A DNA stretch of 64,000 nucleotides from Aquipluma nitroreducens (lineage in GTDB: Bacteria > Bacteroidota > Bacteroidia > Bacteroidales > Prolixibacteraceae). The notes under the pieces are model-generated. The model was not told the DNA's origin and did not search any database. It worked only from the letters and a program-made list of their open reading frames with translations. Location of the stretch: the NCBI RefSeq assembly GCF_009689585.1, contig NZ_AP018694.1, positions 1,674,001-1,738,000 of the forward strand, in the 5' to 3' direction. Position numbers and translations under genes: made by a program. How positions within the stretch are numbered: position 1 is the first letter of the stretch; every line of letters begins with the position of its first letter. Shown here piece by piece: positions 5,298 through 63,163 of this stretch.

Positions 5298-5330
5298 ACT
5301 GATCTGATGACCCGAAGTCGCTGGATCAGT
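5298..5330. repeat. 33-base palindrome, degenerate copy 1
   Basis: The geometry is 7-1-8-1-8-1-7. The outer arms ACTGATC and GATCAGT are perfectly complementary. The inner arms (GATGACCC / AAGTCGCT) have decayed from GGTGACTT / AAGTCACC. It lies between the divergent leuS and the NmrA-type gene. Other copies are at 6304, 32105 and 63131. Confidence 0.6.
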
Positions 5331-5397
5331 TGGAGAAAAGTGAACTTTTACGCTATTTCAACGTTCAATCCTCGAAACAATTTTAAATACAAATCAC

Positions 5398-6288
5398 ATG
5401 AAATTCGTTGTAACAGGTTCATTAGGAAACATCAGCAAACCTCTTGCTGAAAAATTGATTGCTGCCGGACACAGCGTGACTGTAGTGAGCAGCAAACCCG
5501 ACAAAACTGCGCAAATCGAAGCATTGGGCGCCAAAGCAGCCATTGGTTCGGTTGAAGATGTTGCTTTCCTGACAAAAACATTTACCGGCGCTGATGCTGT
5601 TTACACGATGGTACCGCCCAATTTTAGTGCTGCCAACTGGAAAAAATACATTGCTGATATTGGAGAAAACTATGCTGAAGCGATACATGGTGCGGGAGTG
5701 AAAAATGTAGTTAACCTCAGTAGTATGGGAGCTCATATGCCTGAAGGTTGTGGCCCGGTGAGCGGTTTGTTCTTCGTTGAAAAGGCGCTGAATGCTCTTG
5801 AAAGTGTTAATGTGAAACACCTTCGTCCCGGATTTTTTTATACTAACTTTTTAGCCAATGCCGGAATGGTGAAGCACATGGGCATTATTGGCGGAAATTA
5901 TGGCGAAAATGCGAAACTGGTATTGGTTCATCCAAGCGATATTGCTGAAGTTGCCGCTGAAGAAATTCTAGCCCTTAAGTTTAAAGGGAAAAGCATCAGA
6001 TACATTGTGAGCGATGAAAAAACAACCAACGAAGTCGCCGAAATTTTGGGGAAAGCCATCGGCAAACCTGAACTTCCATGGGTGAACTTCAAGGATGAGG
6101 AAACACTGGGAGGAATGCTACAGGCTGGCGTTCCGGAAGAAATTGCTAAAAATTACGCCGAAATGGGCGCAGCGATGAGAAGCGGACAGATGGATTCGGA
6201 TTATTTAAAGAATAAGCCAACCGTGTTTGGGAAAACAAAATTGGAAGCATTTACTCCAATTTTTGCAGCCGTTTACGCACAGTCCTGA
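5398..6288 (+). CDS. NmrA-family NAD(P)-binding oxidoreductase
   Basis: This is an atypical short-chain dehydrogenase of the NmrA/quinone-oxidoreductase-2 type, 296 residues and cytoplasmic. The N-terminal Rossmann segment MKFVVTGSLGNISKPLAEKL carries the glycine-rich dinucleotide loop, and the strand VKNVVNLSSMGAHMPEG follows the fold. Substrate is unknown; relatives act as quinone reductases or as redox-sensing NADP binders. The gene stands alone, has no signal peptide, and is bracketed by two copies of the 33-base palindrome (5298-5330 and 6304-6336). A strong hairpin terminator follows. Confidence 0.85.
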   Translation: MKFVVTGSLGNISKPLAEKLIAAGHSVTVVSSKPDKTAQIEALGAKAAIGSVEDVAFLTKTFTGADAVYTMVPPNFSAANWKKYIADIGENYAEAIHGAGVKNVVNLSSMGAHMPEGCGPVSGLFFVEKALNALESVNVKHLRPGFFYTNFLANAGMVKHMGIIGGNYGENAKLVLVHPSDIAEVAAEEILALKFKGKSIRYIVSDEKTTNEVAEILGKAIGKPELPWVNFKDEETLGGMLQAGVPEEIAKNYAEMGAAMRSGQMDSDYLKNKPTVFGKTKLEAFTPIFAAVYAQS

Positions 6289-6303
6289 TTTATTTAGTCA
6301 GCT

Positions 6304-6336
6304 ATTGATCAGGTGACTTAAAGTCACCCGATCAAT
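6304..6336. repeat. 33-base palindrome, copy 2
   Basis: The outer arms are ATTGATC / GATCAAT and the inner arms GGTGACTT / AAGTCACC around a single A. It starts 16 bases after the stop of the NmrA-type gene. No U-tract follows, and a separate, stronger terminator comes next, so termination is not its obvious job. Confidence 0.85.
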
Positions 6337-6344
6337 ATGCATAG

Positions 6345-6382
6345 AAACAAGAAACGCTCCTTCTCCGGAGCGTTTCTTGTTT
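6345..6382. terminator. Bidirectional hairpin terminator
   Basis: A perfect 16-bp stem (arm AAACAAGAAACGCTCC) with a 6-base loop lies between two convergent genes. T-rich arm ends on both strands suit termination in both directions. Confidence 0.85.
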
Positions 6383-6396
6383 GTTATCGTGTGTAT

Positions 6397-7974
6397 TTAT
6401 TTCTCTTTTTTTACGTCCCACTGTACCAGTTTCGACGGATAAAAATTGATGTTCATGGCTTTCATGCGTTCGCCATGATTCGCCAAACGAATCTTATAAT
6501 CGTCCCAATTACGCAATTCCGCTGGTGTCCAGCCAATTTCGGCGTAACCCAACAATCGTGGAAAAATCAAGTATTCAGCTTCTTTACGTTCTCCCACTGT
6601 TTCAGACCAAAGCGGAGCTTCAATTCCAGTAATATTTTCTTTTTTGATTTCAGGAACCAGATTCGCCGGATCCCAATTGTAGCCTTTGTCAACTTCGATG
6701 TATGCAGCCCAATGCAATCCATAAGTGCTGGTTGAGTCGTATTGCATATCAAGGTAGGCATTCTTTGCAGGCGACATCAGTACTTTAGCTCCTTGCGCCA
6801 CTCCTTTTATTGCATTTTCGGCCTTAGCCCAATATTGCACAACCGTATTCGGTTTTACTGTTGCCAAGGCTATTTCGTCCCAGGCCAAAACCTTTTTCCC
6901 GTGAGCAACCACCATATCCTGAACCCGATTCATGAAAGGAATGTAATCTTCAATTTTAGTTGCATGCGATTCGTCGCCACCAATGTGCAAATATTCTCCT
7001 GGAGTTAAAGCTGCCAATTCGCGGATCACATCGTCGATAAATTTATAAGTCACTTCTTTCTTGGTAGCCAATGTACTGAATCCCACTTCAGTTCCTGTAT
7101 ATAAATCAGCGGTCTTTCCATTTCCGTTCAACTCAGGGTACGAAGCCGATGCAGCATTGGTATGTCCTGGCATGTCGATTTCAGGAATAATGGTAATGAA
7201 ACGATCCTGAGCATATTTCACAATATCCGAATATTGTTCCTGAGTATAAAATCCACCTTCGCCACCGCCAACTTCAGTTTTACCGCCATGAGCGGTCAGG
7301 TTTGGCCACGATTTAATTTCAATCCTCCAACCCTGATCATCAGACAGGTGCAGATGCATTACATTCATTTTGTAATAAGCCATCTGATCGATAAGGTTTT
7401 TTAAATCATCAACACCGAAAAAATGACGAGCCACATCGAGCATCGAACCACGGTATCCATAAGTAGGATAATCTCGGATTGTTCCGGTTGCGATTTCCCA
7501 AGGTCCCTTTTGTTTCGAAGTCATTTCAACCTGAGCAGGAAGAAGTTGGCGAATCGTTTGAATTCCATGGAATAAGCCAGCTGGCTTATTCGCGGACAAA
7601 CTGATCAGTTTATCAGTAATGGTTAATTGATAACCCTCGTCGCCCAATTCAGAATCACTGCCTGAAAGTGACAGATAAATATTTCCTGGCGCTGGAGCAT
7701 CAGTGGTGGGTTTAACTTCCAGACCTAATCCGGTTGAAGGATTTAACTTGTCGGCCAGATACTGACCAATTTGTTTCAATTCGGCCGATTCGTCCTGAAT
7801 GTAAATATCAGTTTGGTCGGTCAAATCAAATTTACCACCCGTAGCAACTACAGAAACAGGTTTAGGGATCATGTTTTCTTTTGAAAGATCGGTAGGTTTA
7901 CAAGCCATCTGGCTGAAGATCACAGTTAAAAAAAGCGATCCGAAAGCAAAGAGTTTAAATTTGGTTTTTGTCAT
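6397..7974 (-). CDS. GH20 beta-N-acetylhexosaminidase lipoprotein
   Basis: It removes terminal beta-linked GlcNAc or GalNAc from glycans. The N-terminus MTKTKFKLFAFGSLFLTVIF ends in a lipobox (SQMAC, Cys25), so the enzyme should be membrane-anchored and exported. A GH20b-like domain (about residues 35-165) precedes the catalytic barrel, which carries HLHLSDDQGWR and the catalytic pair Asp334-Glu335 in HIGGDESHA. The Asp positions the substrate acetamido group and the Glu is the general acid. The 525 residues are normal for the family. No SusC/SusD genes are nearby, so this looks like a scavenging enzyme rather than part of a full utilisation locus. Confidence 0.95.
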   Translation of the reverse strand: MTKTKFKLFAFGSLFLTVIFSQMACKPTDLSKENMIPKPVSVVATGGKFDLTDQTDIYIQDESAELKQIGQYLADKLNPSTGLGLEVKPTTDAPAPGNIYLSLSGSDSELGDEGYQLTITDKLISLSANKPAGLFHGIQTIRQLLPAQVEMTSKQKGPWEIATGTIRDYPTYGYRGSMLDVARHFFGVDDLKNLIDQMAYYKMNVMHLHLSDDQGWRIEIKSWPNLTAHGGKTEVGGGEGGFYTQEQYSDIVKYAQDRFITIIPEIDMPGHTNAASASYPELNGNGKTADLYTGTEVGFSTLATKKEVTYKFIDDVIRELAALTPGEYLHIGGDESHATKIEDYIPFMNRVQDMVVAHGKKVLAWDEIALATVKPNTVVQYWAKAENAIKGVAQGAKVLMSPAKNAYLDMQYDSTSTYGLHWAAYIEVDKGYNWDPANLVPEIKKENITGIEAPLWSETVGERKEAEYLIFPRLLGYAEIGWTPAELRNWDDYKIRLANHGERMKAMNINFYPSKLVQWDVKKEK

Positions 7975-8059
7975 GGTTAGTGATATGTTTATTTGTTATT
8001 AATCTGTTTTTTAATTGTCAGATGGAACTTGCCAGTGATAATTATTAGTCGGGATGAAA

Positions 8060-8389
8060 TTATATCTCATGGCTCGTTTCATTAAGTTTTTCAATTTTAA
8101 ATATAACTGGCATTAATCCATCGGAACAACTGCTAATCGCCGTTCCCGGCTTTTTCATCCAGGGGTAACTGCCATCAAACATGATGTGAGTTACATCTTT
8201 TTGAATGTCGCCCCAAGCCCAGGCACAGAACCCTTCAGGAATGTTGTTGTGATCTTCAACCAAAAATTCCTGACCAACCGTTAGCAGGTGACACCCCAGG
8301 CACTGATCAGAAATGTCTAAACTGGAATACTCATCAACAAAATCTCTATTAATCATCTTCCTCAGAACTGTAATCTTACAACTTGCCAT
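8060..8389 (-). CDS. TIGR04076 family protein, function unknown
   Basis: A 109-residue protein with the family's features: an N-terminal KITVL strand, QCLGCHLL, VGQEFLVE, PEGFCAWAWGDIQKDV, PWMKKPGTAISSCSDGLMPVIFKIE. Conserved cysteines and tryptophans suggest metal or redox chemistry, but no function is established to my knowledge. The start is placed at the ATG at 8389 (MASCKITVL); the frame is open to 8431, but those 14 residues are not family-like. It lies 38-80 bases from the DMT transporter gene upstream, possibly in the same transcript. Confidence 0.8.
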   Translation of the reverse strand: MASCKITVLRKMINRDFVDEYSSLDISDQCLGCHLLTVGQEFLVEDHNNIPEGFCAWAWGDIQKDVTHIMFDGSYPWMKKPGTAISSCSDGLMPVIFKIEKLNETSHEI

Positions 8390-8469
8390 GACTTCCCGTT
8401 TTAAGTGTTTTGAAAAAGGCAATTTACCCAAAAAACATGGATTATCATTCTGTTTCAGATTGATCTATG

Positions 8470-9357
8470 TCATTCAACAAGCTTTAAAATACGTGTTCTT
8501 TTTCCTATCCTGAAATTAACGAAAACCAAAAGAAAACATGAGCCGACAATAACAAACGCGCCCATCATCTCAATAGTTGTGTACACTTCGTGAAAAATGA
8601 GCCATCCTGCAAGTAAGTTAAAAACCGGCACCATCGATTGCATCAGTGAACCTGTTGCCACATTCACATAACGGTAGCCTTCTGTCATAAACAATTGACC
8701 AATAGTAGCAACAACACCTACCAAAACAAGCAACAATAACTCTGTCAAATTGCCTTTAGCTTGTGTTGCTCCTGAAGGAATGAGAAACATCCAGAAACCG
8801 ACGATACACTGCGAAAAGAAAATGGCATATGAATTATCGCTGTTGTGTAATTTCTTTACAAATACTACAGCAAGTCCGGTAGTTACCGATCCGGCAATCG
8901 CAATCAGTTCAAAAATACCCATTCCAGCCAACGATCCTTTTCCGCCACCAACCGAAAGCAAAATGAGTCCGACAAACGAAATGGCTATAATAATAAATTT
9001 AATGGGTTCCACTTTTTCTTTCAGGATGAGCATACTGAAAAGAGTGGCAAAAATGGGATACGAATAAATATAGACCGACCCTTTTCCAACACCGAGCTTC
9101 AATATCGCCAGATAAAACAGGTAAACGGCAATTCCTCCAACCAAACCACGCCAAAATAATCCTTTCCGATTGTTAAACTTAAGCTGGATAACGCCAAACA
9201 GCGATAAAAGACCAACAATACCAACACCAATGGCAAAGCGAAAAAAAGTGGTTTGATAGCTTGAAACATTGGGGATCGCTTTCACCAAAACAGCCATCAG
9301 CGCGAAGAAAACAACTGAGCCTAAAGTTAAGAATATGCCTTTAGAATGATCGGACAT
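8470..9357 (-). CDS. EamA-family (DMT) membrane transporter
   Basis: This 295-residue inner-membrane protein has about ten hydrophobic segments in two EamA repeats (roughly residues 7-135 and 150-280), starting GIFLTLGSVVFFALMAVLVKAIPNVSSYQTTFFRF. Members export amino acids, nucleobases or other metabolites; the substrate cannot be read from sequence. The second repeat carries the typical GQLFMTEGYRYVNVATGSLMQSMVPVFNLL segment. The gene precedes the TIGR04076 gene on the same strand. Confidence 0.92.
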   Translation of the reverse strand: MSDHSKGIFLTLGSVVFFALMAVLVKAIPNVSSYQTTFFRFAIGVGIVGLLSLFGVIQLKFNNRKGLFWRGLVGGIAVYLFYLAILKLGVGKGSVYIYSYPIFATLFSMLILKEKVEPIKFIIIAISFVGLILLSVGGGKGSLAGMGIFELIAIAGSVTTGLAVVFVKKLHNSDNSYAIFFSQCIVGFWMFLIPSGATQAKGNLTELLLLVLVGVVATIGQLFMTEGYRYVNVATGSLMQSMVPVFNLLAGWLIFHEVYTTIEMMGAFVIVGSCFLLVFVNFRIGKRTRILKLVE

Positions 9358-9452
9358 AGAAATTGGTTCGAAGTTAGTTTCGCAAAACTACAGATATTAT
9401 CCAGAACAATAGCTGACAAAAATGATTAAACCTGATATTTTGGGTTATAAAA

Positions 9453-9475
9453 AACCCCCGCACTTGGCGAGGGTT
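9453..9475 (-). terminator. Rho-independent terminator after the cyclophilin gene
   Basis: On the minus strand AACCCTCGC pairs with GCGGGGGTT (one wobble) around a 5-base loop and is followed by T6, about 10 bases past the stop. Confidence 0.8.
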
Positions 9476-9484
9476 TCAGATCAT

Positions 9485-9922
9485 CTATTCTTCGATAATT
9501 ACGATCTTCTCAATTAAATCGCCCTGACGAATGGCATCAATCACTTCGAGACCTTCGTAAACCTTGCCGAAGCACGTATGTTTGCGGTCGAGGTGCGATG
9601 TGTTGCGGCGACTGTGGCAGATGAAAAACTGCGAACCACCTGTATTGCGTCCGGCGTGAGCCATCGATAAGACACCACGGTCATGATATTGGTTTTCGCC
9701 ATCCAACTCGCAAGGAATCTTGTACCCTGGACCACCTGAGCCAGTTCCATTAGGGCAACCACCCTGAATGACGAAATCAGGAATTACACGATGAAATGTC
9801 AACCCATTGTAAAACCCACTTTTAGAAAGTTTAATGAAGTTTTCAACTGTTCCTGGGGCATCTTCATCGTAGAAGTTCAGTTTCATAACCCCTTTGCTGG
9901 TATAAATTTCTGCTTTGCTCAT
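9485..9922 (-). CDS. Peptidyl-prolyl cis-trans isomerase, cyclophilin type
   Basis: It catalyses proline cis-trans isomerisation during protein folding. The 145 residues include [46 protein letters not shown] and [10 protein letters not shown], covering the active-site Arg, Gln and Phe of the family. There is no signal peptide, so it should be cytoplasmic. The start is placed at the ATG at 9922 ([15 protein letters not shown]). A -7 element at 9947-9954 overlaps the longer start (9949), which argues against it. Confidence 0.95.
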
Positions 9923-9946
9923 TTTTGTATTATTAAAGATTGGCTG

Positions 9947-9954
9947 CAAAAATA
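9947..9954 (-). promoter_or_regulatory. -7 promoter element of the cyclophilin gene
   Basis: The minus strand reads TATTTTTG, 25 bases before the ATG at 9922. It fits TAnnTTTG and places transcription start inside the longer open frame. Confidence 0.45.
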
Positions 9955-10112
9955 CAATATTTTGCTCAAACTGAGATTTATTGCATGCTTAACATTTTCC
10001 CATGTTACACAACAGCACACTACAGGATAGCTGAATTTATCTTTATTCGTATTCTTGCTCATCGAAATCTAACTTGCTTTTTTATTTGTTGCCCATCAAC
10101 GAAATATTATCT

Positions 10113-10138
10113 ATAAAAATGTTCCTCAACATTTTTAT
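10113..10138. promoter_or_regulatory. Perfect 11-bp hairpin upstream of fucP
   Basis: ATAAAAATGTT and AACATTTTTAT flank a CCTC loop, 102 bases before the fucP start. It could be a terminator, an mRNA hairpin or a regulator site. The 318-base gap 9923-10240 otherwise holds the cyclophilin promoter and the palindrome at 10142. Confidence 0.5.
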
Positions 10139-10141
10139 GAC

Positions 10142-10159
10142 CTTGCAAAGCTTTGCAAG
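10142..10159. promoter_or_regulatory. 18-bp perfect palindrome, candidate fucose-locus operator
   Basis: CTTGCAAAG is followed directly by its reverse complement CTTTGCAAG, 81 bases before the fucP start. A palindrome with no loop suits a dimeric DNA-binding repressor better than RNA folding. GntR-type FucR regulators control fucose genes in Bacteroides, but no regulator gene lies here. Confidence 0.5.
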
Positions 10160-10240
10160 AGTGTTGTGTCGCAAATGGGTTTGGCAAATCAAATTGGATT
10201 GTTGATTTTTGACTCTTAATTAAACTAAACATTCTTAACC

Positions 10241-11539
10241 GTGAACTCGAAAACCAAAGCAAAAGTTGTTTCAAGGGAATTGCTGGTTCCATTTATCTTA
10301 ATTACCAGTTTATTCTCACTATGGGGATTTGCTAACGACATCACCAATCCGATGGTAGCTGCCTTTAAAACTGTAATGGAAATATCGAATGCAAAAGCAG
10401 CATTGATACAGTTTGCATTTTATGGCGGGTACGCTACTATGGCCATCCCGGCAGCTCTTTATGTAAAAAAGTACAGTTACAAAAAGGGAATCTTAATGGG
10501 TTTAGCTCTCTACGCTTTAGGGGCACTTCTCTTCTACCCGGCGGCCAAATATGAAATTTTCGAATTCTTTCTTTTATCTTTATACATTTTAACCTTTGGC
10601 CTGGCTTTTCTCGAAACAACAGCTAATCCCTATATTCTTTCAATGGGCAGCGAAGAAACTTCAACCCGCAGATTGAATTTGGCTCAGTCGTTTAATCCAA
10701 TGGGGTCATTGCTCGGAATGTTTGTTGCCTCAAATTTCATTTTAACCTCGTTGCAGTCGGATGTCCGAAACGAATCAGGTGCATTGGTCTTTAGCACTTT
10801 AAGCGAAGTTGAAAAAGCAGGTATCCGTACCCACGACCTTGCTGTTATCCGCGATCCGTATGTGATACTTGGTTTTGTTGTGATTTTGATGTTTCTCGTA
10901 ATTTACTTGTTTAAAATGCCGAAGCGAAAAGACCCCGATCATACCATACATGCCAAGGATACATTCCGAAGGCTAATTGCAAATCCAAATTATCGAGAAG
11001 GGGTTATTGCACAAGTATTTTATGTTGCCGCACAAATCATGTGCTGGACATTCATTATTCAATATGCTGAAAATTTGGGGATCACCAAAGCGCAGGCACA
11101 ACATTACAACATCATTGCTATGGGCATATTTCTCACAAGTAGATTTATTAGTACAATGTTGATGAAATATTTGAATTCCAGACTATTACTCACGGTCTTT
11201 GCGACTGGTGGCTTTATTATGACACTCGGAGCAATCCTGATTGTAGGTATGCCCGGGTTATATTGTCTGATCGGCATATCAGCTTTTATGTCTCTTATGT
11301 TTCCTACCATTTATGGAATCGCCCTCGAAGGCGTTGGCGAAGATGCTACACTTGGAGCTGCCGGGTTGGTTATGGCCATTGTGGGAGGAGCTTTAATGCC
11401 ACCTTTACAGGGAGCTATTATCGATTTGGGTACAGTTGGCTGGCTTCCGGCAGTAAACTTTTCCTTCACCCTACCTTTAATCTGTTTTGTCATTATTGGC
11501 ATTTATGGGTATCGCACGCTAACGGTTCATCGCAAATAA
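10241..11539 (+). CDS. fucP: L-fucose:H+ symporter
   Basis: A 12-helix major facilitator of the FHS/FucP family (432 residues) that imports L-fucose with a proton across the inner membrane. Family features are FILITSLFSLWGFANDITNPMVAAFKTVMEIS near the N-terminus and LAFLETTANPYILSMG in helix 4-5. The start is the GTG at 10241; the next ATG (in NPM) would cut into helix 1. It is the first gene of a probable fucose operon, 18 bases before the mutarotase gene, and lies behind the palindromes at 10113 and 10142. The catabolic genes fucI, fucK and fucA are not in this window. Confidence 0.93.
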   Translation: MNSKTKAKVVSRELLVPFILITSLFSLWGFANDITNPMVAAFKTVMEISNAKAALIQFAFYGGYATMAIPAALYVKKYSYKKGILMGLALYALGALLFYPAAKYEIFEFFLLSLYILTFGLAFLETTANPYILSMGSEETSTRRLNLAQSFNPMGSLLGMFVASNFILTSLQSDVRNESGALVFSTLSEVEKAGIRTHDLAVIRDPYVILGFVVILMFLVIYLFKMPKRKDPDHTIHAKDTFRRLIANPNYREGVIAQVFYVAAQIMCWTFIIQYAENLGITKAQAQHYNIIAMGIFLTSRFISTMLMKYLNSRLLLTVFATGGFIMTLGAILIVGMPGLYCLIGISAFMSLMFPTIYGIALEGVGEDATLGAAGLVMAIVGGALMPPLQGAIIDLGTVGWLPAVNFSFTLPLICFVIIGIYGYRTLTVHRK

Positions 11540-31016: not shown

Positions 31017-32102
31017 ATGGCAGACTATTCATTAATGGAAAAATACGAATCGATCCGATATCGGTTCGAAGAAGTTGGCTCACAAATTACCGATCCGTCG
31101 GTGATGGGCGACATGAAACGCTACGTCAAACTCAATCAGGAATACAAGCGGTTGGAATTACTGACAACAGCATTCAAAGATTACAAATCAACAATCGATA
31201 ATATCGAATCGGGCAAGCAAATGCTGGCCGAAGAAACCGACGAGGATATCCGCGAAATGGCGCGTGAAGAAGTTGAAGCTTCGGAAGCGTTGATTCCTGA
31301 AAAAGAACAAAATATCAAATTGCTGTTGATACCGGCCGATCCGGAAGATGGCAAAAATGCCATTCTCGAAATCCGTGCCGGAACCGGTGGCGACGAAGCC
31401 AGTATTTTTGCAGGCGATTTATTCCGCATGTACTCCAAATTCTGCGAACGCCGCGGCTGGCGATTGGAAATCACCAATACAAGCGAAGGTACTTCCGGAG
31501 GTTTTAAGGAAATTGTAGCCACTATTACCGGCGAAGGAGTTTATGGCGTGATGAAATACGAATCGGGAGTTCACCGCGTGCAGCGCGTGCCACAAACCGA
31601 AACACAGGGTCGTGTGCATACATCAGCAGCTACCGTGGCTGTTTTGCCTGAAGCCGAGGAGTTCGACATTGACTTGCGCGACAGCGACATCCGAAAAGAC
31701 ACCTACTGTTCTTCAGGACCTGGAGGACAGTCGGTAAATACAACTTATTCGGCTATTCGTTTGACTCACATTCCAACCGGAATCGTGGTAACTTGTCAGG
31801 ATCAAAAATCGCAGATTAAGAACCTTGCAAAAGCGATGATCGAGTTGCGAACCCGTATTTACAACCAGGAACACCAGAAATATCTTGATGCCATTGCTTC
31901 GAAACGAAAGACCATGGTTTCAACCGGAGACCGTTCGGCAAAAATCCGCACCTACAACTGGCCACAGGGAAGAATTACTGACCACCGCATCAATCTGACG
32001 ATTTACAATCTTCAAGCAGTTGTTGGCGGGGACCTGGATGAAATCATCGACAAATTGCAGGTGGAAGAAAACGCAGAACGACTGAAAGAAGCTGAAATTT
32101 AA
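31017..32102 (+). CDS. prfA: Peptide chain release factor 1
   Basis: It ends translation at UAA and UAG. The 361 residues include the codon-reading PxT motif (PQT in RVQRVPQTETQGRVHTSA, near residue 190) and the peptidyl-hydrolysis motif GGQ (SSGPGGQSVN, near residue 236), which is normally methylated by PrmC. The protein is complete and ordinary. It lies 67 bases after purM and 48 bases before pyrF; a 33-base palindrome starts 3 bases after its stop. Confidence 0.96.
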   Translation: MADYSLMEKYESIRYRFEEVGSQITDPSVMGDMKRYVKLNQEYKRLELLTTAFKDYKSTIDNIESGKQMLAEETDEDIREMAREEVEASEALIPEKEQNIKLLLIPADPEDGKNAILEIRAGTGGDEASIFAGDLFRMYSKFCERRGWRLEITNTSEGTSGGFKEIVATITGEGVYGVMKYESGVHRVQRVPQTETQGRVHTSAATVAVLPEAEEFDIDLRDSDIRKDTYCSSGPGGQSVNTTYSAIRLTHIPTGIVVTCQDQKSQIKNLAKAMIELRTRIYNQEHQKYLDAIASKRKTMVSTGDRSAKIRTYNWPQGRITDHRINLTIYNLQAVVGGDLDEIIDKLQVEENAERLKEAEI

Positions 32103-32104: not shown

Positions 32105-32137
32105 AGTGAGCAGGTGACTTGAAGTCACCCGCTCACT
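32105..32137. repeat. 33-base palindrome, copy 3
   Basis: The outer arms are AGTGAGC / GCTCACT and the inner arms GGTGACTT / AAGTCACC around a single G. It starts 3 bases after the prfA stop and ends 13 bases before pyrF. Confidence 0.85.
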
Positions 32138-50971: not shown

Positions 50972-50977
50972 TTAACA

Positions 50978-56449: not shown

Positions 56450-57265
56450 CTATTTATCAAGATATTTTATGTCAACTCTTCTGAATTCAAGAGGTTGACC
56501 TTCAGACTGCAATGCGATGAAGCCATCTTCCAAAAGAGTACCTTCAGGTAACGGATATTTTTTGGGTAATAAATATCCTCCAATCTGTGGTTTCGAGCAT
56601 ACGAGTACCGTGTCGCCATTTACTATGTTGGTTATGGTTTTGCCTCCTTGTACTACAATGTCAAGGTTAACCCATTCTCCATCAGGGAAATATTTCGAAT
56701 TGGAACTAATGCAATGTTCATTTGTTGGCTGGTCCTTAAAATAAACGGTTGTTCCTGGTGTACAAAAGTTCGCGGTAGTCTGTTTAACCGAATCCGTACT
56801 TCCAAGTAATTGTACTTCAATTGAAACCGGCCAGTTCTGGTCAATATCCATGCTTTCGGGCGACTGGGAATGAACCATAACTCCACTGTTTCGGTAACAA
56901 TACGAGGGAGCATCAGGCAACATTTCTCCAACAAACCGATATTCGACATGAAGAATGTATGACGACAACTTCTCTTTGTAAAACAAATGTCCAAAGCGGC
57001 CATTAAATTTGTCGAATTTACTGTAATCGATTTTAAGAATTCCGTTTTCGACCCTAAATCCGTTAAGTGGATTTTCTCCTGATTGGTATCCGGTTACTTT
57101 TAGAGTCCAACCATCCAGGTTTTTTCCATTGAATAGAGGTATCCATTCACCATTCTGAGAAATCGCAGATTGTTTATGATCGGCTATAGGTGATTGACCT
57201 TCAGCGTTCCGGACAAAGCTGAAAAACACAGCAATAAGTAGTAATACTAAAATGTTTCGGTTCAT
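56450..57265 (-). CDS. DUF1080 (3-keto-disaccharide hydrolase-type) protein A
   Basis: A 271-residue exported protein (signal MNRNILVLLLIAVFFSFVRNAEG). DUF1080 features are WIPLFNGKNLDGWTLKVTG, GFRVENGILKIDYS, SYILHVEYRF, YRNSGVMVHSQSPESMDIDQNWPVSIEVQLLG, GEWVNLDIVVQG and IALQSEGQPLEFRRVDIKYL. The insert around residues 90-160 makes it longer than protein B, so the two are likely specialised for different substrates or linkages rather than a recent duplication. It is the first gene of the cluster (transcription right to left), so the cluster promoter should be upstream of 57265; I find no clear element there. Confidence 0.87.
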   Translation of the reverse strand: MNRNILVLLLIAVFFSFVRNAEGQSPIADHKQSAISQNGEWIPLFNGKNLDGWTLKVTGYQSGENPLNGFRVENGILKIDYSKFDKFNGRFGHLFYKEKLSSYILHVEYRFVGEMLPDAPSYCYRNSGVMVHSQSPESMDIDQNWPVSIEVQLLGSTDSVKQTTANFCTPGTTVYFKDQPTNEHCISSNSKYFPDGEWVNLDIVVQGGKTITNIVNGDTVLVCSKPQIGGYLLPKKYPLPEGTLLEDGFIALQSEGQPLEFRRVDIKYLDK

Positions 57266-57410
57266 CGTATTGGCAAGTTAGTTTGGTTCTAAAAGTAATC
57301 ACAATCTAAATTTAAAACAATATTACAGGCATTTCAATTAGCGCCCAATCTTAAGTTGTTGGTTGGGCATATTCAAACACTCAAAACGATCCACCTAAAA
57401 ATAAACTAAA

Positions 57411-57442
57411 AATGCCACCTGTTTGGATAAACAAGTGGCATT
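57411..57442 (-). terminator. Terminator after purN
   Basis: AATGCCAC pairs with GTGGCATT, with an inner GTTT/AAAC pair, and a T-run follows on the minus strand, 28 bases past the purN stop. Confidence 0.75.
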
Positions 57443-57469
57443 CTATATCAGAACAATCAATTAGCACAA

Positions 57470-58045
57470 TTAATCATCATCTTCTTCACTTAATAACACT
57501 TCCTCAATTACCCGTGGGTAATGCTGATATTCTAACTCATGAATGCGAGCAGCAAGTGTTTCCGGAGTATCCTTTGGCAATATTGGACAAGTTGCCTGAA
57601 AAATAATCTTTCCCTTATCGTAATCCTGATTGACCTGATGGATTGTGATTCCGGATTCTTTGTCTTTTGAAGCAAGTACGGCTTTGTGCACATTTACCCC
57701 GAACATACCTTTTCCACCGTATTTGGGCAATAAAGCCGGATGAATATTGATAACAGTAAATAATTCGGTGAGATTACGTGGAACCAGCCAAAGGAAACCG
57801 GCCAGAACAATCATGTCAATCCTATGGTCGTAGAGTCTGTCTAAAATCTCGTTACTTCTGTAAAATTCGTCACTCTCGAATGTGAACGTTTCAATTCCGA
57901 GTTTTTCTGCCCGGATTAGTGCATACGCATTTTCATTATTCGACCAAAGTGAATCAACAACAATCTCCTTACTGGTTGAGAAATACTCAATTATCTTTTG
58001 GGCATTCGTCCCGGAGCCCGAGGCAAAAATGGCAATTCGTTTCAT
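57470..58045 (-). CDS. purN: Phosphoribosylglycinamide formyltransferase 1
   Basis: It transfers a formyl group from 10-formyl-THF to GAR in purine synthesis. The 191 residues include the phosphate-binding loop FASGSGTNAQKII, IVLAGFLWLVP and the catalytic INIHPALLPKYGGKGMFG and SGITIHQVNQDYDKG (Asn, His, Asp triad). It is divergent from acpP over 192 bases, an arrangement seen in many Bacteroidota. Its own promoter is at 58098-58128. Confidence 0.95.
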   Translation of the reverse strand: MKRIAIFASGSGTNAQKIIEYFSTSKEIVVDSLWSNNENAYALIRAEKLGIETFTFESDEFYRSNEILDRLYDHRIDMIVLAGFLWLVPRNLTELFTVINIHPALLPKYGGKGMFGVNVHKAVLASKDKESGITIHQVNQDYDKGKIIFQATCPILPKDTPETLAARIHELEYQHYPRVIEEVLLSEEDDD

Positions 58046-58097
58046 TTAATCTTTCGTTTATTGTTTTATGTCTAATGGAATTTTAGAATAATAGGTT

Positions 58098-58128
58098 CAA
58101 ATGTAGATCAACTATCTAAATCATTCAA
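58098..58128 (-). promoter_or_regulatory. Promoter of purN
   Basis: On the minus strand TTG (58126-58128), a 20-base spacer and TACATTTG (58098-58105) match both promoter elements, 53 bases before the start codon. Confidence 0.55.
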
Positions 58129-58158
58129 GCTTTATTCAACCATTTAATTCATTTTTAG

Positions 58159-58190
58159 TTTGAAATATCGGGTGTAAATTTATTACTTTG
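58159..58190 (+). promoter_or_regulatory. Promoter of the acpP-fabF-rnc operon
   Basis: TTTG (58159-58162), a 20-base spacer and TTACTTTG (58183-58190) lie 48 bases before the acpP start. The spacing is that of the Bacteroidota consensus; the -7 box is off by one position. Confidence 0.55.
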
Positions 58191-58237
58191 CATCGAATTT
58201 TTTGAAACAATTTTAATATTAACCAAAAATTAGAGTT

Positions 58238-58474
58238 ATGTCTGACGTTGCAGCAAAAGTAAAAGCAATTATTGTTGACAAATTAGGTGTTGATGAAAGT
58301 GAAGTTACCCTCGAAGCATCATTCACCAATGACCTTGGTGCTGATTCACTTGACACCGTAGAATTGATCATGGAATTTGAAAAAGAATTCGATTTGGCTA
58401 TTCCAGATGATCAGGCTGAAAAAATCTCAACTGTAGGTGAAGCGATTTCGCACATCGAAGCAAATTTGAAGTAA
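58238..58474 (+). CDS. acpP: Acyl carrier protein
   Basis: It carries growing acyl chains during fatty-acid synthesis. The 78 residues are highly acidic, with Ser37 in [11 protein letters not shown] as the phosphopantetheine site. It is followed after 19 bases by fabF, the classic order. Standard in every respect. Confidence 0.97.
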
Positions 58475-58493
58475 TAATAACAAAACGAAATTT

Positions 58494-59735
58494 ATGGAAT
58501 TTAAACGGGTAGTTGTTACCGGCCTTGGAACTGTAAACCCGCTTGGTAATTCTATTGAGGAATTCTGGGACGGCTTAAAAAATGGGAAAAGTGGCGCAGG
58601 CCCTATTACTCATTTTGATGCCACCACTCACAAAACAACTTTTGCCTGCGAGCTGAAGAATTTCGATCCTTCGGTCTATGTGGAGAAAAAAGAAATCAGG
58701 AAACACGATCCTTTCACTTTGTATGCTTATGCAGCTGCTGCACAGGCAATGGAAGATTCTGGTCTTGATCTCGAAAAAATCGACAAAGACAGGGCTGGAG
58801 TTGTTTGGGGTGCCGGAATTGGAGGCTTACAAACCTTCTTTGAAGAAACGTTGAATTATAAAAACGAGATGCCTCGATATTCGCCGTTCTTCATTCCTAA
58901 AATGATTGCCAACATTGCAAGTGGTTTACTCTCTATCCGATACGGATTTAGAGGCCCAAATTTCACAACGGTAACAGCATGTGCTTCTTCCTCAACAGCC
59001 CTTATCGAAGCGATGAATTATATTCGTATGGGTAAGGTGGATGTATTTATCTCCGGAGGTTCAGAGGCAGCAATAAATCCTGCAGGCTTAGCTGGATTTA
59101 ATTCCATGCGGGCTCTTTCGACCCGAAATGATGATCCAACGACAGCTTCACGTCCTTTTGACTTGGATCGCGATGGATTTGTGATGGGAGAAGGTGCTGG
59201 AGCTCTCATTTTAGAAGAGTATGAGCACGCGGTAAAACGTGGTGCAAAAATTTATGCCGAGTTGGTAGGTGGTGGTATGTCAGCTGATGCTTACCATATG
59301 ACTGCCCCCGATCCTGAATCAGGTGGTGCAACTTTATGCATGAAATGGGCTTTGGAAGATGCAGGTATGAATCCGGAAGACATTGATTATATTAATGTAC
59401 ACGGAACTTCAACTCCACTTGGAGACATCGCTGAACCTCAGGCTATTCAGAAATTATTTGGAGAACATGCTTACAAAATGAGCATTAGTTCAACCAAATC
59501 GATGACTGGTCACTTACTGGGAGCAACTGGTGCTGTTGAAGCAATTGCATGTATCCTCGCTATCCAAGAGGGTATAATTCCACCCACAATTAATCACTTT
59601 AAGGATGACCCTGAAATCGACTCAAAACTTGATTTCACATTCAATGTAGCTAAAGAACGCAAAATCAGAACTGCATTAAGCAATACGTTTGGTTTTGGCG
59701 GACACAATGCTACTGTTATTTTCAAGAAAATTTAA
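58494..59735 (+). CDS. fabF: 3-oxoacyl-ACP synthase II
   Basis: It condenses malonyl-ACP with acyl-ACP in chain elongation. The 413 residues carry the Cys163 nucleophile in TVTACASSSTALIEAM and the two active-site histidines in NVHGTSTPLGD and STKSMTGHLLGATGAVEA. GFGGHNATVIF ends the protein, as in the family. It is the middle gene of acpP-fabF-rnc; rnc starts 5 bases after its stop. Confidence 0.97.
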   Translation: MEFKRVVVTGLGTVNPLGNSIEEFWDGLKNGKSGAGPITHFDATTHKTTFACELKNFDPSVYVEKKEIRKHDPFTLYAYAAAAQAMEDSGLDLEKIDKDRAGVVWGAGIGGLQTFFEETLNYKNEMPRYSPFFIPKMIANIASGLLSIRYGFRGPNFTTVTACASSSTALIEAMNYIRMGKVDVFISGGSEAAINPAGLAGFNSMRALSTRNDDPTTASRPFDLDRDGFVMGEGAGALILEEYEHAVKRGAKIYAELVGGGMSADAYHMTAPDPESGGATLCMKWALEDAGMNPEDIDYINVHGTSTPLGDIAEPQAIQKLFGEHAYKMSISSTKSMTGHLLGATGAVEAIACILAIQEGIIPPTINHFKDDPEIDSKLDFTFNVAKERKIRTALSNTFGFGGHNATVIFKKI

Positions 59736-59740
59736 CACAA

Positions 59741-60496
59741 GTGATACGAACTATCGTTCAAAGAATAAAACTCTTTTCTTCTTCTAGAAAAGAGTTTTAT
59801 TTATTTTTAAGATCGCTGCTGGGTTTTTATCCGACAAACTTACGCGTATACGACATTGCCGTTATTCACAAATCGGCTTCAAAAATTGATTCACAAGGTA
59901 ATTACATTAATAATGAACGGCTTGAATATTTAGGCGATGCCATATTAGGAGCTGCCATTGCCGATTTTCTGTACAACCGTTTTCCAAATCAGGATGAAGG
60001 CTACCTCACCCAAATGCGTTCGAAACTGGTCAACCGCAGTTTTCTGACACAATTAACTTACCAGATTGGCCTGAATCATTTCATCCAATCGAACACCACC
60101 TCAACCATCGAATCGAGCCATATTTACGGCGACACACTCGAAGCGCTTATCGGTGCAATTTACCTGGATAAAGGTTATCCGGAAGCAAAAAAATTTATCA
60201 CCCGAAAACTGCTGAACAATTACGTTAATCTGGTTGAAGTGCAAAACACGAACTCCAACTACAAAAGTCAGTTGATTGAGTGGTCGCAGAAAAATAAGAA
60301 AGCAGTTTCGTTTGACACTACCGACGAAAGCAAAAATGATGGGAAACAACCGTGGTTCATGGCAATTATTGAAGTCGACAATGAGCTTTTGGGAAAAGGC
60401 TCTGGCGCGTCCAAAAAAGAAGCCCAACAAAATGCGTCAAAGGTTGCCCTCGATAAAATTAAAGACCGGTACCCCGATCCAAACCCTGCAGAATAG
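59741..60496 (+). CDS. rnc: Ribonuclease III
   Basis: It cuts double-stranded RNA in rRNA and mRNA processing. The 251 residues have the catalytic signature NNERLEYLGDAIL (57-69), a second acidic cluster near SHIYGDTLEALIGAIYLD and a C-terminal dsRNA-binding domain (about 175-245; YKSQLIEWSQKN, GSGASKKEAQQNASKVAL). The start is the GTG at 59741, the first codon before the conserved region, 5 bases after fabF. The hairpin at 60573 ends the operon. Confidence 0.95.
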   Translation: MIRTIVQRIKLFSSSRKEFYLFLRSLLGFYPTNLRVYDIAVIHKSASKIDSQGNYINNERLEYLGDAILGAAIADFLYNRFPNQDEGYLTQMRSKLVNRSFLTQLTYQIGLNHFIQSNTTSTIESSHIYGDTLEALIGAIYLDKGYPEAKKFITRKLLNNYVNLVEVQNTNSNYKSQLIEWSQKNKKAVSFDTTDESKNDGKQPWFMAIIEVDNELLGKGSGASKKEAQQNASKVALDKIKDRYPDPNPAE

Positions 60497-60572
60497 GAAT
60501 TGCCTTTACGTATTTAACTCCTTTTCCTTTCATTTACACCCCAAAGGTTCATTTATTTTAGTTGCAAAAACT

Positions 60573-60610
60573 AAAACAGAAATTGAAATAGCCATTCCAA
60601 TTTCTGTTTT
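60573..60610 (+). terminator. Terminator after rnc
   Basis: A perfect 13-bp stem (AAAACAGAAATTG / CAATTTCTGTTTT) with a 12-base loop, between rnc and the kinase gene. Confidence 0.7.
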
Positions 60611-60693
60611 CAGGAGCTAAAGCTTTAACGTTTATTGACTGGAATACCTGTGTTAAATATTGTTAAGTATTTATTATCAGCATTTTTAAAGAT

Positions 60694-60701
60694 TATATTT
60701 G
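60694..60701 (+). promoter_or_regulatory. -7 element immediately before the sensor kinase ATG
   Basis: TATATTTG matches TAnnTTTG exactly and ends 4 bases before the ATG at 60706. Transcription would begin at or within a few bases of the start codon, implying a leaderless mRNA. No -33 element is clear. Confidence 0.4.
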
Positions 60702-60705
60702 CGCT

Positions 60706-62328
60706 ATGAGTAGAAGGGTAATACTTATATTAATTGTGATCATGGCTTTGGTGATGACCAGTTTGATTCTGGTTCAGACCAATTCGATCATGAAAGCACT
60801 TGAAATAAAAGAAGAGCAATTTAACGCACAAGTAAATAGCGCACTGACTAAAGTTGTATATCAACTTGAAATGGATGAGGCTTCATTATTGGTGGATTTG
60901 GCTAAAGATTTTACAACTCCCAGAAACAATGGTATTTTCCCGGGAAGTATTCAACAATCAACCTCGGGAACACTTACCATACAAAGCAAGATCCTTTCCT
61001 ACCAATATTCCCAAAGAACTTCAGGAGTAATTCACAGTGAGGAAATAGCCGTAGATTTTGGTAATGAGCAAACCGACAAAGAAGAAAGCGAACGTGGAAG
61101 ACCTGGAGAATTTCCAAATGCTTTCGATATTTTACACGAATCAGATGGATTTGCCCGAAAGCAATACGAAGCAAGACTTGATTTGAGAGCACGAATGTTT
61201 GAACTGCAAACTCAGGCCGCGATACTCTCGCAATTACCAATTGAAGACCGCATAGGAGACGTAAGTACTCTGGGAAGATCGATTAAGGCTGAACTAAAAA
61301 GACAAGGCATAAATCTTGATTTCAGATATGCACTAAAAACATTTCCCCAAGGAAAAGAACAGTTAGTTTACGGAGATAAAAATTTTAACTCTGACCAGCA
61401 GAACGACTACAAAATCCTCTTGTTCCCGCATGACGATATCCTCCAGCCAAACTGGCTTTTCCTATACTTTCCAAAACAGAAAACCTATCTCCTGAAAGAA
61501 ACCGGGTTCCTGGTTATCCCAACTTTCGTTCTGACAGCTATGCTGATAGGTATTTTTGTTTTCACAATACTGATTATTCTTCGACAGAAAAAATTATCAA
61601 ACATCAAAAACGACTTCATCAACAACATGACTCATGAGCTGAAGACACCAATTTCGACGATTTCACTTGCCAGTCAGATGTTGCGCGACAATACGGTTAC
61701 CAATACTCCAAAAACCATTGAGCATATCTCCGGAATTATTTTTCAGGAGAGCAAGCGGTTAACGACTCAGGTTGAAAAAGTACTTCAAATGGCAGTATTT
61801 AATGAAGGAAAACTGAAACTAAAATTCAAAGAAGTAAATATTAATACGCTGATTAATTCGGTCGTTTTAAACTTCGAACTTAGGGTAAAGTCTAAAAATG
61901 GCGAATTAACCTCAGATTTGAAGGCAGACCCGGCAATCATTAAGGCCGATGAGGTACATCTTACCAATGTTTTGTTTAACTTGCTCGACAATGCTGTAAA
62001 ATACAGCAAGGACGAGCCCAGAATTCATATTTCAACCGAGACAAAAGACGATTTTGTTGTTCTATCGGTAAAAGATCACGGTATTGGAATACAGAGCGAA
62101 CATGTTGGCCAGATTTTTGAGCGCTTTTATCGCGTCCCAACTGGCAATGTGCACGATGTAAAAGGTTTTGGGCTAGGGTTGAGTTACGTTAAAATTATTG
62201 TTGATGCGCACAAGGGAAAGATAAAAGTTGAAAGCGCGCCAAATAAAGGAACAAAATTCATGATATATTTTCCGATAAACACAGAAGACCATGGAAAAAA
62301 AAGTAAAATTGCTATTGGCCGAGGATGA
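60706..62328 (+). CDS. Membrane sensor histidine kinase
   Basis: A 540-residue inner-membrane kinase. One helix (about 4-26) and a second (about 267-289) enclose a periplasmic sensor part of about 240 residues with no recognisable domain. There is no obvious HAMP. The dimerisation domain has NDFINNMTHELKTPISTISLASQML with the phospho-accepting His310. The ATPase domain has the N-box (LTNVLFNLLDNAVKYS), DHGIGI, FERFYRV and GFGLGLSYVK. It overlaps the response regulator gene by 38 bases. The signal sensed is unknown. Confidence 0.93.
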   Translation: MSRRVILILIVIMALVMTSLILVQTNSIMKALEIKEEQFNAQVNSALTKVVYQLEMDEASLLVDLAKDFTTPRNNGIFPGSIQQSTSGTLTIQSKILSYQYSQRTSGVIHSEEIAVDFGNEQTDKEESERGRPGEFPNAFDILHESDGFARKQYEARLDLRARMFELQTQAAILSQLPIEDRIGDVSTLGRSIKAELKRQGINLDFRYALKTFPQGKEQLVYGDKNFNSDQQNDYKILLFPHDDILQPNWLFLYFPKQKTYLLKETGFLVIPTFVLTAMLIGIFVFTILIILRQKKLSNIKNDFINNMTHELKTPISTISLASQMLRDNTVTNTPKTIEHISGIIFQESKRLTTQVEKVLQMAVFNEGKLKLKFKEVNINTLINSVVLNFELRVKSKNGELTSDLKADPAIIKADEVHLTNVLFNLLDNAVKYSKDEPRIHISTETKDDFVVLSVKDHGIGIQSEHVGQIFERFYRVPTGNVHDVKGFGLGLSYVKIIVDAHKGKIKVESAPNKGTKFMIYFPINTEDHGKKSKIAIGRG

Positions 62329-62986
62329 TGAAAACCTTGGATTGTTACTGAAAGAATATCTAATTGCCAAAGGATATGAAACAGATTTATATTCCGATGG
62401 AGAGTTGGCATACAAAGGATTCACTAAAAATCAGCCTTACAACCTCTGTATTCTGGATATCATGATGCCTAAAAAAGATGGGATCTCGTTGGCCAAAGAT
62501 ATCCGGTTGCTTAACATGGACGTTCCGATTATTTTTCTGACTGCCAAAAACATGAAGGAAGATGTGTTGGAAGGATTCAAAATCGGTGCCGACGACTACA
62601 TCACAAAGCCATTCAGCATGGAAGAGTTGATTTTCCGTATTGAAGCCATTATGCGACGGGTAAGTCAGGATAACAATTCCCACGAAGATGCTGTTTATCA
62701 ATTGGGTATTTACACCTTCGATTCGCGTAAGCAAATCCTCACCGGAGGTGAAGAAGATGAAGTAAAGTTAACCACCAAAGAAGCTGAATTGCTCCGTTTG
62801 CTGTGCAACAATGCAAACAAGGTTTTAGAACGTAACTTTGCCCTTAAAACAATATGGATAGATGACAACTATTTCAATGCCCGTAGCATGGATGTTTACA
62901 TTACTAAACTCCGGAAGCATTTGAAAGATGATCCGAAAGTTGAAATCATCAACGTGCACGGAAAAGGATACAAACTGATCATGTAA
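62291..62986 (+). CDS. OmpR-family response regulator
   Basis: A 231-residue DNA-binding regulator. The receiver domain (about 1-120) has LLAEDDENLG, the phosphorylated Asp56 in CILDIMMPKKDG, FLTAKN and the conserved Lys in YITKPFS. The winged-helix domain (about 135-231) has LTTKEAELLRLL and ARSMDVYITKLRKHLKDDPKVEIINVHGKGYKLI. Its start lies inside the kinase gene, so the two are translationally coupled partners. Targets are unknown. Confidence 0.95.
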   Translation: MEKKVKLLLAEDDENLGLLLKEYLIAKGYETDLYSDGELAYKGFTKNQPYNLCILDIMMPKKDGISLAKDIRLLNMDVPIIFLTAKNMKEDVLEGFKIGADDYITKPFSMEELIFRIEAIMRRVSQDNNSHEDAVYQLGIYTFDSRKQILTGGEEDEVKLTTKEAELLRLLCNNANKVLERNFALKTIWIDDNYFNARSMDVYITKLRKHLKDDPKVEIINVHGKGYKLIM

Positions 62987-63011
62987 TCTGAAACTGTACC
63001 CAGATATAAAA

Positions 63012-63038
63012 AAATCCTGCTGCAAAGCGGGATTTTTT
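63012..63038 (+). terminator. Terminator after the response regulator gene
   Basis: AAATCCTGCT pairs with AGCGGGATTT (one wobble) around GCAA and runs into TTT and then GTTTT. Confidence 0.8.
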
Positions 63039-63077
63039 GTTTTCGGAATTTTCGTTTTCGAAAATCAAATCACAAAA

Positions 63078-63113
63078 AAAAGGTTTCTCCATTTTGATCT
63101 GGAAAAACCTTTT
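63078..63113 (-). terminator. Terminator candidate for lepA
   Basis: A 14-bp stem with one mismatch (AAAAGGTTTCTCCA / TGGAAAAACCTTTT) is followed by T-rich sequence on the minus strand. It lies 60 bases beyond the lepA stop. Confidence 0.6.
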
Positions 63114-63130
63114 ATAAAATATTGTTTGGT

Positions 63131-63163
63131 ACTGAGCAGGTGACTTGAAGTCACCTGCTCAGT
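63131..63163. repeat. 33-base palindrome, copy 4
   Basis: The outer arms are ACTGAGC / GCTCAGT and the inner arms GGTGACTT / AAGTCACC around a single G. It starts 9 bases after the lepA stop (reading leftward) and precedes the terminator at 63078. Confidence 0.85.

What the first reader, a model, noticed from the sequence alone, without database searches (positions are those of the whole stretch)
5298..63163. Family of four 33-base palindromes with compensated arms
Copies at 5298, 6304, 32105 and 63131 all have the layout 7-1-8-1-8-1-7. Three share the inner arms GGTGACTT / AAGTCACC exactly. The outer arms differ (ATTGATC, AGTGAGC, ACTGAGC, ACTGATC), yet each is perfectly matched by its partner, so the ability to pair is what is kept. 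Three copies lie 3-16 bases after stop codons (the NmrA-type gene, prfA, lepA), and copies 1 and 2 bracket the NmrA-type gene. No U-tract follows, and copies 2 and 4 have separate terminators beside them, so they are not simple terminators. They could be REP-like elements, protein-binding sites or mRNA 3'-end structures.
Basis: seen in the sequence. Interest (0 to 1): 0.8.

Follow-up and report, generated by a model that had tools for sequence, protein, structure and literature searches.

The report
REP-type palindromes parked after stop codons
The palindromes belong to a genome-wide family of about 44 short hairpin elements that sit mostly just after genes and are most likely spread by a known kind of single-strand transposase (RAYT), whose genes in related bacteria carry the same hairpins around and inside them.

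Summary
Copies 2-4 are near-perfect 33-nt palindromes; copy 1 (5298) is a decayed relative. The family is genome-wide: 43 sites with a first covariance model, 44 with a broader one. It is in 33 of 61 genomes searched, own included, among them all 23 of the genus. In 37 own copies 9 of 16 pairs change on both sides; the covariation score (0.368 against 0.126) is reached by 0 of 500 shuffles. Of 41 scored copies, 34 start within 30 nt after a stop codon, against 18% of random intergenic placements. The window's genome has no detected RAYT of this clade. The usual GT[AG]G guide is absent (1 of 74 ends; 5 of 119 RAYT-side ends). In-frame REPs inside RAYT genes are already described for subclass 2.4 (PMC6006769). 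I file this as a guide-less variant of REP/RAYT. A host role at mRNA 3' ends is possible, not shown.

The parts
5298..5330 (.). Copy 1: decayed element of the second subfamily (ACTGATC...GATCAGT), between divergent leuS and the NmrA-like gene
   Evidence: outer arms pair, inner arms do not
6304..6336 (.). Copy 2: 33-nt palindrome, 15 nt after the NmrA-like gene's stop codon
   Evidence: copy with different, mostly compensated arms at the same place in G003, 14 nt after the NmrA stop (L207 19155-19187)
32105..32137 (.). Copy 3: 33-nt palindrome, 2 nt after the prfA stop codon and 13 nt before pyrF
   Evidence: also at the same place in G003 and in Gaoshiqia sediminis L114
63131..63163 (.). Copy 4: 33-nt palindrome, 9 nt after the lepA stop codon (lepA on the - strand)
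   Evidence: G008 looks like an empty site
6345..6382 (.). Separate hairpin between the converging NmrA-like and GH20 genes; not part of the family
   Evidence: I4; also in G003 and G017
63078..63113 (-). Separate intrinsic-terminator-like hairpin downstream of lepA; not part of the family
5398..6288 (+). NmrA-like gene, host of copy 2
31017..32102 (+). prfA (release factor 1), host of copy 3
63173..64000 (-). lepA (3' part in the window), host of copy 4

Best explanation
The palindromes are REP-type non-autonomous mobile elements. Each 33-nt unit folds, as single-stranded DNA, into a hairpin that a RAYT (an HuH/tyrosine single-strand nuclease) recognises, cuts and re-joins, so copies are spread in trans. 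Copies persist mainly just after stop codons, where they harm neither the gene before nor the promoter after. The outer arms differ but still pair because what must be kept is a foldable hairpin around a TGACT...AGTCA core, and because several arm variants exist in the source loci. The window's genome has no detected RAYT of this clade, so its roughly 44 copies look like orphans, some decaying (copy 1) and some still perfect. Shown: the family, its covariation, its 3' placement, its presence or absence at orthologous places, and RAYT genes in relatives with the same palindromes upstream, in frame inside, or downstream. Inferred: that this RAYT cuts these hairpins, that it made the copies in this genome, and why they survive at 3' ends.
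For: Copy number: 43 sites with model R1 (16 of them in the model), 44 with R2 (37 in the model); 33 of 61 genomes hold the family, own included, with all 23 of the genus. Covariation over 37 copies: 9 of 16 pairs change on both sides (2 of 500 shuffles reach 9), 78 of 592 cells (0 of 500), score 0.368 against 0.126 (0 of 500). RAYT link: 18 of 30 RAYT loci fetched by protein similarity hold R1 matches at E up to 1 (16 of 28 after merging two double entries), against 0 of 34 Pfam-Y1 loci. In 49 RAYT rows (one pair, L252/L261, is the same gene) a palindrome of any type lies inside the ORF in 36, upstream within 160 nt in 30, downstream within 80 nt in 27; 8 rows have none. Five RAYT genes (L234, L248, L249, L255, L256) carry the window's subfamily GGTGACT...AGTCACC beside or inside them; L229 carries it inside. 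All 25 aligned RAYTs match NF047646. Palindrome type follows the RAYT tree over 37 labelled rows: 13 changes against 24.5 shuffled, 0 of 200 as low. Presence or absence: after prfA in 2 of 22 genus loci, after lepA in 6 of 22, one divergent; empty-looking lepA site in G008.
Against: No RAYT of the clade found in the window's genome (none at 1e-6; best E 0.096, another HuH-like protein). The canonical guide GT[AG]G is absent (1 of 74 own ends; 5 of 119 ends at RAYT genes) and no flank is conserved. Elements at orthologous sites look more conserved than their adjacent flanks (93.4% against 73.7% over 23 overlapping pairs), which passive decay would not predict, although the pairs were chosen by element similarity. 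I saw no target duplication in the flanks I read, but did not test for it systematically. Eight of 49 RAYT rows have no palindrome by the scan used (L231, L232, L236, L252, L260, L261, L266, L271). Some RAYT loci mix types (L226, L228, L229, L265). R1 matches are common in genomes where I found no type-A RAYT, such as G000 and G003.
Confidence: 0.85

Rival explanations
1. The hairpins are kept for a host function in mRNA: a 3'-end structure that blocks exonucleases, stalls ribosomes near the stop codon, or separates genes of an operon. Mobility would be only how they arrived.
For: 34 of 41 copies start within 30 nt after a stop codon, median 13 nt, and 23 of 25 tandem copies lie nearer the stop than the next start. 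Strong RNA folds for window copies 2-4. Orthologous copies more conserved than adjacent flanks in 22 of 23 overlapping pairs. A paper on E. coli REPs says, citing an earlier study, that REPs under 16 nt from a stop codon lower translation (PMC12306157, passages).
Against: No excess of G.U over A.C on the transcribed strand in the 33-nt tandem copies (11 against 9; leaving out the apex pair, 4 against 7). At the two gene ends checked across the genus most genomes lack the element (prfA 20 of 22, lepA 16 of 22), though other sites are shared between some pairs. The same 3' placement is reported for ordinary REPs (PMC3733652, section 15).
Confidence: 0.3
2. They are intrinsic transcription terminators that happen to share sequence.
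For: 6 of 38 scored copies have at least 6 T in the 8 nt after the hairpin on the gene strand, against 1 on the mirror side. 14 of 41 lie between converging genes.
Against: 32 of 38 have no such T-tract. Copies 2 and 4 have separate hairpins beside them. Copy 3 lies in a tandem gene pair 13 nt from pyrF. Sequence is conserved across unrelated genes and inside RAYT reading frames.
Confidence: 0.08
3. They are binding sites of a dimeric DNA-binding protein.
For: Symmetric, with a conserved TGACT...AGTCA core.
Against: Opposite half-sites change together; half-sites of a duplex-binding dimer would be expected to vary independently. Placement is after genes, with 2 of 41 between divergent genes.
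Confidence: 0.05
4. Perfect arms are maintained by template switching or hairpin-copy repair (palindrome correction), with no selection on pairing.
For: At orthologous sites arms can differ yet stay paired: 5 compensated pair positions in 23 pairs, such as own 3952932 (L097) against L045.
Against: 25 one-sided changes in the same pairs. Arm variants already exist inside single RAYT loci (L226, L249), so no correction in place is needed.
Confidence: 0.15

Closest known systems
REP sequences with RAYT/TnpAREP, subclass 2.4 (Bertels group 4) of Quentin et al. 2018 (PMC6006769; passages and section 23 seen)
   Same: [quoted passage not shown] Bacteroidetes among the hosts; the symmetric type recalls their 'double foot' REPs
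   Different: No GT[AG]G feet in our copies. The RAYTs that carry types A and B have FQ instead of WQ, an extra stretch before the Y motif and a WEFSS stretch after it, which that paper's table gives to other subclasses
Subclass 2.6 (group 5) TnpAREP with atypical palindromes (PMC6006769, passages)
   Same: Bacteroidetes; insertion between alphaC and beta4; SS extension after the core; palindromes without the usual guide, with copies elsewhere in the genome
   Different: In-frame REPs were reported as unique to 2.4; here they occur in genes that look like 2.6. Not placed formally: no reference sequences were at hand
Subclass 2.1 (group 1) TnpAREP (PMC6006769, passages)
   Same: Some of our RAYTs share its listed motifs (NH[YF]H, FQ, Y[IV]HLNP) and an SS extension
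   Different: That subclass was reported to have no REPs and a longer C-terminal domain; ours have palindromes and are short
GTAG and CGTC REPs (PMC3733652, passages and section 15)
   Same: Dispersed, mainly between tandem and converging genes, close after the 3' end; some inside genes
   Different: No GTAG tag, and hardly any CGTC-like tag (C[GA]TC 2 of 74), at the ends
Perfect-palindrome REPs of S. maltophilia and Marinomonas (PMC8266576; abstract, section list and section 29 seen)
   Same: Perfect palindromes, co-evolved with their TnpAREP
   Different: Section headings there name a GTAG motif; ours have none
RPE elements of Rickettsia (mentioned in PMC3733652; otherwise recalled)
   Same: Palindromes found in frame inside proteins; one own copy (47757) lies in a CusB/HlyD-like gene
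   Different: Here 41 of 43 sites are outside genes, and the family is tied to a RAYT

Membership tests
REP element | 20-40 nt palindrome that folds into a hairpin | tested here: met
   33 nt, 16 pairs, 92.9% of 592 cells paired over 37 copies
REP element | Many dispersed copies, mostly outside genes | tested here: met
   44 sites. Of the 43 first-model sites, 1 is inside an ORF, 1 was dropped as a partial match and 41 are intergenic by a home-made gene caller. 44 is low beside the >100 per genome that a REP paper's abstract calls usual (PMC2817692, abstract start)
REP element | Preference for tandem and converging gaps, close after stop codons | tested here: met
   25 tandem, 14 converging, 2 divergent; 34 of 41 within 30 nt of a stop
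REP element | 5' GT[AG]G guide at the hairpin foot | tested here: not met
   1 of 74 ends of 37 own copies, no conserved flank; 5 of 119 ends of palindromes at RAYT genes
REP element | Cognate RAYT gene bordered by the same palindrome | tested here: met
   met in relatives; no such gene found in the window's own genome
REP element | Cleavage of the single-stranded hairpin by the RAYT | not testable with these tools
   needs purified protein
RAYT subclass 2.4 | REP inserted in frame between HuH and Y motifs | tested here: met
   a palindrome inside the ORF in 36 of 49 rows; 44 inserts lie 8-67 residues after the HuH start and 24-113 before Y; the same scan gave 1 of 29 Pfam-Y1 genes
RAYT subclass 2.4 | Motifs NH[IFV]H, WQ, YIxNNP, no SS extension | tested here: not met
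   type-A RAYTs have SHFH, FQ, YIHANP and WEFSS; the type-F genes (L237-L242) come closer (NHFH, YIHNNP) but lack WQ
RAYT subclass 2.6 | Insertion before the Y motif, SS extension, Bacteroidetes, atypical palindromes | tested here: inconclusive
   features seen in alignment A2 resemble the published table, but no tree with reference members was possible
REP-associated tyrosine transposase (NF047646) | Profile match over the curated cut-off | tested here: inconclusive
   25 of 25 match at E up to 0.001, best 8.6e-19, but the two scores printed (43.6 and 49.1 bits) are under the cut-off of 80
Intrinsic terminator | T-tract directly after the hairpin | tested here: not met
   6 of 38 copies have one

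The most novel reading that the evidence does not exclude
A broad clade of Bacteroidales RAYTs that Pfam's Y1 model mostly misses carries its own guide-less substrate hairpin in frame inside the transposase gene, as a built-in further copy, possibly so that the protein recognises or controls its own gene. After the enzyme is lost, the orphan hairpins stay perfect because the host has taken them over as 3'-end structures. The window's genome would be a natural case of REP domestication without a RAYT.
Probability: 0.25. Interest if true: 0.7.

Novelty: new variant of a known kind. Interest (0 to 1): 0.5.

Why it matters
It ties a covarying 3'-end hairpin family in Bacteroidales, for which I found no description, to its probable transposase. 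It shows REP-like units without the usual guide sequence, and gives sets of related genomes with and without the enzyme in which to ask whether REPs are kept for the host's benefit. Pfam's Y1 model matched only 3 of 25 of these transposases at E 0.001, so surveys that start from it would undercount the system.

Tried and rejected
Rfam search of the window at gathering scores gave only a tRNA. The Pfam Y1_Tnp route to a transposase failed: 6 own loci and 28 further genus loci (34 of the roughly 140 matches listed) showed no family palindrome within 1.5 kb. The link appeared only because one locus fetched by the palindrome pattern (L123) held a RAYT that Y1_Tnp scores under its cut-off. A plasmid search with that RAYT gave one distant match. 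Possible own RAYT at 2989195: a different HuH-like ORF. Own doublet at 2797608/2797658: no RAYT remnant seen around it. Strand test for an RNA function: no signal. A search for the core strings gave four papers, unrelated by title; searches listed no paper that I could recognise as describing this family, judging by listings and the passages read. A 2017 paper on RAYT groups and a 2015 paper on REPs and translation are not held, so both are known to me only through other papers. A mistaken notebook entry (the G003 copy 'on the other side' of the terminator) was corrected and checked. In one search a faulty motif filter found 11 RAYT rows only; one search replaces it; there L258 gave no ORF and L250 and L251 were left out as the same places as L234 and L235. 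An alignment printout (CusB-like paralogue) came out empty and is not used.
Full report
Observation. The four copies are as described. Copies 2-4 share the inner arms, all four outer arms pair, and the nearest stop codons of the NmrA-like gene, prfA and lepA are 15, 2 and 9 nt away. Copy 1 is a decayed member: its inner arms do not pair, it differs from the second subfamily's consensus by 6 transitions, and it lies between divergent leuS and the NmrA-like gene. The motif is far above chance in the window and in the genome (27 matches against 3 for the reversed control).

Family size and shape. The window is G000:C1:1674001-1738000 of a single-contig 5.71-Mb genome. A covariance model from 16 copies finds 43 sites (read); a broader one from 37 copies finds 44 at E up to 0.1, losing one partial match and adding a doublet. 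The model-building copies match by construction. Two subfamilies are seen: A, AGTGAGCG GGTGACTT n AAGTCACC CGCTCACT, and B, ACTGATCC GATGACT nnn AGTCATC GGATCAGT. Over 37 copies 92.9% of cells are paired. Nine of 16 pairs change on both sides (2 of 500 shuffles reach 9), 78 of 592 cells do, and no shuffle of 500 reaches the cell count or the covariation score; sliding the partner destroys the pairing. These shuffles do not allow for relatedness of copies.

Where copies lie. Genes were called with a home-made hexamer caller, so distances carry some error. Of 43 sites I dropped one partial match (2721177) and set aside one inside an ORF (47757); the doublet found later is not in this count. The remaining 41 are 25 tandem, 14 converging and 2 divergent, against 64%, 16% and 20% for random intergenic placements in the window. 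34 of 41 start within 30 nt of a stop codon (17.7% expected, binomial p 1.5e-19); the median is 13 nt among the 39 with a stop on a flanking side. 23 of 25 tandem copies are nearer the stop than the next start, against 50%. Six of 38 have a T-tract.

Relatives. 33 of 61 genomes searched, own included, hold the family, in 11 of 39 genera, with all 23 genomes of the genus. A scan of named genomes with an exact subfamily-A pattern found 26 stretches, all from records named as Bacteroidota or its members, among them Gaoshiqia sediminis, a Draconibacterium MAG and Prolixibacteraceae MAGs. At two orthologous gene ends the element comes and goes: after prfA in 2 of 22 genus loci (G000, G003), after lepA in 6 of 22, one of them divergent. 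Several other relatives carry other repeats at the same ends. G008 looks like an empty lepA site. G003 shares copies 2 and 3. Where two genomes keep an element it is more alike (93.4%) than the adjacent 30-nt flanks (73.7%), in 22 of 23 pairs, with 5 compensated and 25 one-sided pair changes. The pairs overlap and were chosen by element similarity, so this is suggestive only.

The enzyme. Six own Y1_Tnp loci (flanks read) and 28 more from the genus show no family palindrome within 1.5 kb: 0 of 34. One locus caught by the palindrome pattern, L123, held an ORF with HuH and Y motifs and B-type palindromes inside and after it. NCBIfam calls it REP-associated tyrosine transposase at 2.7e-11 but under its cut-off; Pfam Y1_Tnp reaches only E 0.018. 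Searching with this protein found relatives in 20 of 23 genus genomes at E up to 1e-6; G000, G020 and G022 had none. 18 of the 30 loci brought in hold R1 matches at E up to 1, 16 of 28 after merging double entries.

Layout at RAYT genes. In 49 RAYT rows from the genus and order (one gene counted twice) a palindrome of any type lies inside the ORF in 36, upstream within 160 nt in 30 and downstream within 80 nt in 27; 41 have at least one and 8 have none. [quoted passage not shown] The same scan found a palindrome well inside 1 of 29 Pfam-Y1 genes. The window's subfamily A lies beside or inside the RAYTs of G014, G011, G002, G007 and G009, and inside that of G017; in G014 and G011 the inside copy is decayed. 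Other RAYTs carry other palindromes (GATGA, TTCACT, GCGACT, CTGACAGG cores and others), and the type follows the RAYT tree (13 changes against 24.5 shuffled, 37 labelled rows). That tree was a quick one with long branches, and some loci mix types.

Own genome. A profile of 25 RAYTs finds nothing of the clade in G000 (best E 0.096, another HuH-like ORF). The copies here therefore look like orphans. G003 also has many R1 matches but, of this search's RAYT hits, one type-F gene and one with an in-frame stop.

Mechanism. By analogy with E. coli TnpAREP, which processes cognate single-stranded REPs in vitro (PMC8266576, abstract), I infer that the RAYT acts on the folded single strand and spreads the units in trans. 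Hairpin folding would explain why arms change together. Placement close after genes is reported for ordinary REPs too (PMC3733652, section 15). A host role in mRNA remains open: the folds are strong, but the G.U/A.C test gives no sign that pairing is kept on the transcribed strand (11 against 9; without the apex pair 4 against 7).

Comparison. In-frame REPs inside RAYT genes are known and were called unique to subclass 2.4 (PMC6006769). Our A- and B-carrying RAYTs differ from that subclass in motifs. They have features the same paper lists for subclass 2.6, and some share motifs listed for 2.1, which was reported without REPs. I could not place them by a tree with reference sequences. The canonical guide is missing. 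I therefore file the family as a guide-less variant of the REP/RAYT kind, not as a canonical REP.

Noticed in passing
L133-L177 (prfA and lepA 3' ends in relatives): The same 3' intergenic places carry quite different repeats in different species (GTAGAGACGC..., CCCCATCCC..., GTTACGAGTT...), as if 3' ends were a shared docking place
   Followed up: partly
L068 2985-3017 (G000:C1:47757-47789): One own copy lies in frame in a CusB/HlyD-type gene, coding TTQQVTPSHPLS
   Followed up: partly
L278 3009-3091 (G000:C1:2797608-2797690): B-type doublet, 17 nt apart, 6 nt after an ABC-ATPase-like gene (by eye); similar spacing to the two palindromes inside B-type RAYT genes
   Followed up: yes
L016-L018 (G000:C1:281739, 388475, 380218): Three IS200-like transposase genes; two have in-frame stops
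   Followed up: no
L055 1501-1882 and L064 216-437: Elements repeated with the same flanks at spacings of about 174 and 189 bp, so probably inside short tandem duplications
   Followed up: no
L237-L242, L259: A second RAYT clade with ACCCCTGACAGGGTTTGGAACCCTGTCAGGGGT-like palindromes in frame and around most of the genes; resembles subclass 2.4
   Followed up: partly
L108 and L110: Contigs labelled Saprospiraceae with AGTGACCGGGTGACTT... copies, far from Prolixibacteraceae by name
   Followed up: no
L207 (G003), beside the orthologue of window 6345-6382: In G003 a second, decayed element follows the stop of the converging GH20 gene
   Followed up: partly
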